A stretch of 50,941 nucleotides of DNA, taken from contig NZ_SMAA01000017.1 of the NCBI RefSeq assembly GCF_004341685.1, positions 1-50,941 of the forward strand, given 5' to 3'. The DNA comes from Pectinatus cerevisiiphilus. Lineage in GTDB: Bacteria; Bacillota; Negativicutes; Selenomonadales; Selenomonadaceae. The position numbers and the translations under genes are program-made. This document shows, piece by piece, positions 17,845-19,446 of the stretch. The notes under the pieces were generated by a model, which ran no database searches, was not told the origin of the DNA, and saw only the letters and a program-made list of their open reading frames with translations. Each line of letters begins with the position of its first letter. Within the stretch, counting starts at the first letter, position 1.

Positions 17845-19446
<1,602 letters not shown>

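What the first reader, a model, noticed from the sequence alone, without database searches (positions are those of the whole stretch)
19354..19360. cas7 is split by a 1-nt change in a poly-A run while the rest of the system is intact
Upstream of the apparent start at 19354 lies a perfect Cas7 N-terminus with its own ATG (19446) and ribosome-binding site, in the wrong frame. Eight A instead of seven would join it. Either interference is switched off (Cascade backbone lost), or the run is a contingency/slippage switch that tunes Cas7, or it is a sequencing error. The neighbouring start MQKKG also contains a run of eight A. If real, the cell would keep adaptation genes and a huge array without normal interference.
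Basis: partly seen in the sequence, partly recalled or inferred. Interest (0 to 1): 0.68.

Follow-up and report, generated by a model that had tools for sequence, protein, structure and literature searches.

The report
Single-base break in CRISPR backbone gene
A bacterium with a very long CRISPR memory carries a one-base deletion that splits the gene for the backbone of its CRISPR weapon, most likely a recent and ordinary loss of function rather than a built-in switch.

Summary
In a type I-B (Cst1/Cst2) system the only cas7 found in a 2.63-Mb genome is split at 19354-19360 (minus strand): codons 1-31 lie in one frame, the other 264 in another, with a run of seven A at the junction. The other seven cas genes match two same-genus genomes at near full length. 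The array has 184 repeats; a second array has 43. All 19 homologues read at the site are open. The slippery-looking heptamer A_AAA_AAA follows from a conserved Leu-Lys-Lys. In the sampled genome that heptamer is not avoided (169 seen, 171 expected) and A7 runs are in excess, while runs of nine or more A are avoided (7 seen, 34 expected). So A7 does not look like a slippage switch here. One spacer matches the host perfectly, but its flank (TGC) does not fit the tentative YCN PAM; no other full self-match was found, which suggests interference worked until recently. Best reading: a frameshift loss of Cas7, probably recent, that disables Cascade and leaves adaptation genes and memory in place. 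A sequencing error and weak recoding remain open. Ordinary; low interest.

The parts
19288..19446 (-). cas7 5' fragment: 52-codon frame, first 31 codons are the Cas7 N-terminus, ends TGA 19290-19288
19354..19360 (-). run of seven A at the frame junction (CTA AAA AAA TGG in the upstream frame)
18560..19354 (-). cas7 3' frame, 264 codons from ATG 19354; TIGR02585 from profile position 27
19289..19291 (-). ATG overlapping the TGA of the 5' fragment (ATGA), in the cas7 3' frame (residue 53): possible restart keeping downstream translation going; inferred
   Evidence: sequence
19449..21143 (-). cas8b1/cst1
19449..19799 (-). candidate internal Cas11b (116 aa) from an in-frame ATG behind a Shine-Dalgarno-like GGAGGGG; inferred
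   Evidence: sequence; precedent PMC11899642 (title and start of abstract in search listing)
21159..21890 (-). cas6
17845..18567 (-). cas5t, overlaps the cas7 end
15506..17788 (-). cas3 (HD plus helicase)
15007..15531 (-). cas4 (56.9 bits, under the TIGR00372 cut-off of 65; 76% identical to G004 and G001)
13997..14989 (-). cas1b
13714..13992 (-). cas2
13517..13713 (.). leader region between cas2 and the newest repeat; inferred from position
144..13516 (-). CRISPR array: 184 repeats of 30 nt, 182 uninterrupted spacers, one spacer interval holding an IS
898..2194 (+). spacer interval holding an IS with a transposase HTH frame (993-1274) and an rve integrase-core frame (1469-2167), joined by an in-phase TTA AAA AAA site; IS3-like by recall
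10804..10839 (.). 41st spacer from the leader: 36/36 match to the host's own ygfK-like gene (G000:C8:65593-65628), flank TGC
13452..13486 (.). newest (leader-proximal) spacer; one target site seen in two related phage sequences (6 and 7 mismatches), both flanked by CCA

Best explanation
A one-base loss in an A-run about 90 nt into cas7 has made the only cas7 of this type I-B system a frameshift allele. Shown: the upstream frame stops after 52 codons, only 31 of them Cas7. Inferred: restarts at the ATGs at 19354 or 19289-19291 would give Cas7 without its first beta strand, and could keep translation of cas5 and the genes behind it going. Without full-length Cas7 the Cascade backbone cannot form on crRNA, so interference is off in this isolate. 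cas1, cas2, cas4 and the arrays are physically intact and could still take up spacers. The break is probably recent.
For: The split and the single copy. 19 of 19 homologues open across the site. The missing residues hold strand 6-16 of the fold in a model of a 61%-identical Cas7 (mean pLDDT 79.6); the top PDB matches of that model are chains of type I-B Cascade complexes. In Haloferax I-B, crRNA was 32% of wild type with cas5, 6 and 8 but no cas7, 98% with all four (PMC3945376 section 29). No in-genome sign that A7 or A_AAA_AAA slips. Recency: no other frame lesion in cas7; only one full self-match among 224 spacers (215 distinct), without a fitting PAM. Precedent: cas7 and cas8 frameshifts in 12-day evolved Pseudomonas lysogens under self-targeting (PMC11406979, passages; abstract start).
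Against: No reads, second strain or expression data. Three IS copies in the same genome keep the same in-phase A7 site, and IS3-family elements are known to use frameshifting or slippage (PMC3711429 passage), so some recoding at this motif is possible in this host. The lack of self-targets could also mean the system still works. Against recency: cas7 has diverged from G004 three times as much as G001 has (25% against 8%), the largest ratio of the eight cas genes (the others 0.9 to 2.7; hand arithmetic). A relative-rate count against G004 is uneven: own-only against G004-only changes are 29:12, 24:16 and 14:20 with three outgroups.
Confidence: 0.6

Rival explanations
1. Sequencing, assembly or consensus error: the living strain has an intact cas7.
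For: All 19 homologues are open and the other cas genes align at near full length. Single frame changes also appear in two other otherwise intact sampled genes, a YitT-family gene and a dehydrogenase.
Against: Homopolymer-limited error should break more long runs: in 165 own genes with a counterpart in sampled same-genus DNA there are 93 A7, 26 A8 and 1 A9 coding-strand runs, and only cas7 is broken at one. The two other frame changes are not at runs of seven or more. Contig C14 has the same length (75,279) as an IMG/VR record with an identical terminase, suggesting an isolate draft rather than a metagenome bin (inference from the record name, recalled).
Confidence: 0.22
2. Weak rescue: -1 ribosomal frameshifting on A_AAA_AAA, or RNA polymerase slippage on A7, gives some full-length Cas7, so interference is throttled rather than lost.
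For: The heptamer is in the right phase (CTA AAA AAA), as in the three IS copies of this genome (TTA AAA AAA). 'Pseudo-pseudogenes', broken at 9A runs and proposed to be rescued by slippage, have been described (PMC1088944, passages). No self-target with a fitting PAM was found (40 of 51 candidates scored).
Against: No stable structure downstream: z -0.31, 0.90 and 0.06 for 90, 70 and 51 nt. The IS site folds better in absolute terms but is not significant either (z -0.39 to -0.78), so this test does not recognise the likely known case. A_AAA_AAA is not avoided (169 seen, 171 expected; 142 and 140 in longer genes), as would be expected if it were costly. A9+ but not A7 is avoided. 7 of 19 homologues carry the heptamer and all read straight through it.
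Confidence: 0.15
3. Phase-variable contingency run that switches interference on and off by replication slippage.
For: A same-genus genome (G004) has eight A at the site with an intact frame.
Against: Seven A is short and A7 is over-represented in this genome's genes (ratio 1.21-1.25). Five of 19 homologues have A8, none is broken, and the run is not kept.
Confidence: 0.03

Closest known systems
Type I-B CRISPR-Cas with Cst1/Cst2/Cas5t genes
   Same: Gene families and the same gene set in G004 and G001; tentative YCN PAM, as measured in Clostridioides difficile (PMC8406132 abstract and passages)
   Different: cas7 split; very long array (184 repeats)
cas7/cas8 frameshift alleles in evolved Pseudomonas aeruginosa lysogens (PMC11406979)
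   Same: Frameshift in a Cascade gene with the rest kept (passages)
   Different: There driven by a self-targeting spacer; here the only full self-match lacks a fitting PAM
Pseudo-pseudogenes proposed to be rescued by slippage at A9 runs (PMC1088944)
   Same: Frame broken at an A-run
   Different: Run is A7, which is not avoided in this genome
IS3-family orfA/orfB -1 frameshift site
   Same: Same phase and same seven A, present in the same window
   Different: Not a conserved overlap in cas7; no predicted stimulator

Membership tests
Type I-B CRISPR-Cas locus | cas8b1/Cst1, cas7/Cst2, cas5t, cas3, cas6, cas1b, cas2, cas4 next to an array | tested here: met
   (Cas4 hit below its cut-off)
Type I-B CRISPR-Cas locus | complete effector gene set | tested here: not met
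   cas7 split, no second copy found
Programmed -1 ribosomal frameshift | slippery heptamer in phase | tested here: met
   CTA AAA AAA TGG
Programmed -1 ribosomal frameshift | downstream stimulatory structure | tested here: not met
   z -0.31 to 0.90; the IS site is not significant by this test either
Programmed -1 ribosomal frameshift | frame overlap conserved in relatives | tested here: not met
   0 of 19 homologues split
Transcriptional-slippage rescue | run long enough to slip in this organism | tested here: not met
   indirect: A9+ avoided (0.20), A7 not (1.21)
Phase-variable contingency locus | run-length variants within a population | not testable with these tools
   one assembly, no reads
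Recent loss-of-function allele | single frame lesion with intact orthologues | tested here: met
Recent loss-of-function allele | no relaxed selection on the lineage | tested here: inconclusive
   relative-rate counts 29:12, 24:16, 14:20 with three outgroups
Recent loss-of-function allele | no full-length product, no interference | not testable with these tools
   needs proteomics and a plasmid assay

The most novel reading that the evidence does not exclude
Cas7 is made only by low-frequency frame slippage at A_AAA_AAA, the same motif the resident IS elements carry, so Cascade is throttled without being lost: a recoding-limited CRISPR effector that tolerates spacers such as the self-matching one.
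Probability: 0.1. Interest if true: 0.6.

Novelty: new member of a known kind. Interest (0 to 1): 0.24.

Why it matters
If real, it is a natural snapshot of a CRISPR system that lost its effector while its adaptation genes and more than 200 stored spacers are still present. It would allow a direct test of whether such a cell keeps acquiring spacers, self ones included. The in-genome avoidance test also gives a cheap way to judge whether an A-run in a given organism is a plausible slippage switch.

Tried and rejected
Self-targeting as proof that interference is off: a perfect 36/36 self-match was found, but its flank TGC does not fit YCN. G004, whose cas7 is intact, also has a perfect self-match, at the end of an IS110-family transposase gene, flank AAC. 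Rejected as proof.

PAM inference: I counted hits with at most 8 mismatches over the full spacer. There are 10 sites for 10 spacers: CCA twice, CCG, CCT, TCA against CTA twice, AGG, GAT and TGC. 5 of 10 are YCN (chance 0.004) and 4 of 10 CCN (0.002). One search had used higher counts; a check showed that two of its CCA hits are the same site in two related phages, so its figures are withdrawn. The TGC site is weak but has the same flank as the self-match. The spacer at 6190 is duplicated at 6321 and counted once, as is the one shared by both arrays. Reversed-spacer controls gave 0 hits; one search had none. The G001 orthologue of the self-target (6 mismatches) is not counted. The PAM is tentative.

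Phage and plasmid collections: no match to the array. Type III sharing of the array: no Csm1-type cas10 over cut-off. Sequence search of the PDB with Cas7: none; the fold search gave Cascade chains (TM 0.56-0.63 for the top hits, rmsd 7 A or more). Papers on recoding of cas genes: one search listed 13 papers, by title none on a natural cas gene; one search listed 3 and one search listed 2; none of these 18 was opened. Two partial homologue rows (L008, L053) were dropped before the count of 19. In one search I set aside most of the 26 candidates, by reading and not by test, as joins of two neighbouring genes.

Full report
What is there. On the minus strand a type I-B operon runs cas6, cas8b1, cas7, cas5, cas3, cas4, cas1, cas2 (21890 to 13714), followed by an array of 184 repeats (144-13516), leader end towards cas2. 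cas7 is split. The frame opened by ATG 19446, two bases behind the cas8 stop, gives 31 correct Cas7 residues. At CTA AAA AAA TGG (A7, 19354-19360) the Cas7 reading moves to another frame, which stays open for 264 codons. The 5' frame ends in a TGA that overlaps an ATG of the 3' frame (sequence). In the genome (2.63 Mb, 47 contigs, completeness 100) no other cas7 was found; there is one cas1 and one cas3 over cut-off and no Csm1-type cas10 over cut-off.

Comparison. Cas7 loci came from 380 genomes of the class (11 with a match, the own genome included) and from named genomes (11 loci). Of these, 19 homologues were read at the site; two partial matches were dropped; two of the 19 are only 31% identical. 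All 19 are open. The Lys-Lys at the site is coded AAA AAA in 13 of 19, the in-phase heptamer A_AAA_AAA occurs in 7 of 19, and A8 in 5 of 19 (hand count). So the slippery look comes from a conserved Leu-Lys-Lys in A-rich DNA. The same-genus genome G004 has A8 there and an intact gene.

Is A7 slippery in this organism? In 420 open frames of 150 aa or more from the sampled genome, against 200 shuffles of synonymous codons within genes, A_AAA_AAA is seen 169 times (171 expected), A7 273 (226), A8 72 (83) and A9 or longer 7 (34). With 285 genes of 250 aa or more the picture is the same. G004 agrees for A9 (23 against 84) and A7 (593 against 479), though its A8 is in excess, 210 against 174. Avoidance is strong from nine A. 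PMC1088944 used the same kind of test, found that the avoided length varies among genomes, and worked with runs of nine (passages). Folding 51-90 nt behind the site gives z between -0.31 and 0.90. The same window holds an IS inside the array with TTA AAA AAA in the same phase; all three near-full-length copies keep it. Its two frames match transposase HTH and rve integrase-core families; the name IS3-like is recalled. The motif may therefore shift at some rate in this host, and this is the main point for the rival reading. The folding test does not single out the IS site either.

Error or real? With 165 own genes that have a counterpart in the sampled same-genus DNA, 3 show a frame change: cas7, a YitT-family gene (one lesion) and a RhuM-family gene with many lesions, plainly decayed. 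A composition scan also showed an alcohol-dehydrogenase-like gene with one frame change. Only cas7 is broken at one of the 120 coding-strand A-runs of seven or more in the 165 genes. This is not the pattern of a homopolymer-limited error, but a single error cannot be excluded. Contig C14 (75,279 bases) equals in length an IMG/VR record with a 100% identical terminase, so the source is probably an isolate draft (inference from the record name, recalled).

What would be lost. In an AlphaFold model of a 61%-identical Cas7 (12 sequences, mean pLDDT 79.6, low at 18-28 and 140-152) the missing part holds strand 6-16 and the start of the next strand. The top PDB matches are chains of type I-B Cascade complexes, 8fcj and 8h7q among them (chain names not given). 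Cas7 without this strand is unlikely to build the backbone (inference). In Haloferax, cas5-6-8 without cas7 gave 32% of wild-type crRNA, all four genes 98% (PMC3945376 section 29).

How long ago? Spacers of both arrays (182 and 42, of which 215 distinct; the IS-interrupted one left out) were compared with the whole genome (in one search only 40 of 51 candidates were scored). One full self-match was found: spacer 41 from the leader against a ygfK-like host gene, flank TGC. Non-self sites, six of ten in or near a prophage region of the same-genus genome G002 or its IMG/VR relative, point tentatively to a YCN PAM (5 of 10 sites, chance 0.004), as measured in C. difficile (PMC8406132). So the self-match is probably harmless even to a working system. 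Spacer uptake without cutting is expected to bring in host DNA: in one type II study the plasmid share fell from 68% to 4% when Cas9 could not cut (PMC6990116 passage). If 5% of uptake were self, 40 newer spacers without one would have probability 0.13; with 10%, 0.015. Together with the otherwise undamaged frame of cas7, this points to a recent break, or to a system that still works. Against this, cas7 is the cas gene with the largest excess divergence from G004 (three times that between G001 and G004; other cas genes 0.9 to 2.7), and relative-rate counts are uneven: 29:12 with L006, 24:16 with L005, 14:20 with L009. Relaxed selection is thus not shown and not excluded.

Verdict. A confirmed observation and most likely an ordinary, probably recent loss-of-function allele. 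The switch reading is tested and not supported; error and weak recoding stay open.

Noticed in passing
G000:C4:206090-208899 (L095): Second CRISPR array, 43 repeats, near a contig end; most of its repeats are variants also seen at window 2856-3122, and two adjacent spacers are identical in both arrays (window 2886 and 2952).
   Followed up: partly
G000:C8:65593-65628; window 10804-10839: Perfect 36/36 self-matching spacer to a ygfK-like host gene, flank TGC, which does not fit the tentative PAM.
   Followed up: yes
window 898-2194: IS (IS3-like by recall) inserted in a spacer of the array; two further copies at C36:2507-3727 and C2:224740-225957, 98% identical.
   Followed up: partly
G000:C1:41647-41991: Decayed cas1 fragment (four internal stops) in an intergenic region, perhaps the relic of another CRISPR locus.
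   Followed up: no
G000:C9:105631-105665: Lone CRISPR-repeat-like sequence near a contig end.
   Followed up: no
window 19449-19799: In-frame internal ATG with a Shine-Dalgarno-like sequence in the 3' part of cas8: candidate Cas11b.
   Followed up: no
window 4869-5102, 6190-6421, 11595-11830: Duplicated pairs of adjacent spacers, presumably from recombination within the array.
   Followed up: no
G000:C14: 75-kb contig with a prophage terminase; none of 355 spacers matched the 60 kb sampled.
   Followed up: partly
G000:C8:11629-12487 (L045), G000:C2:13387-14431 (L033), G000:C14:58880-59678 (L247): Other frame-changed genes: YitT family, an alcohol-dehydrogenase-like gene, and a decayed RhuM-family gene.
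   Followed up: partly
G004: spacer L054 7347, target L066 17806-17843: Perfect 38/38 self-match in a same-genus genome with intact cas7, at the end of an IS110-family transposase gene.
   Followed up: partly
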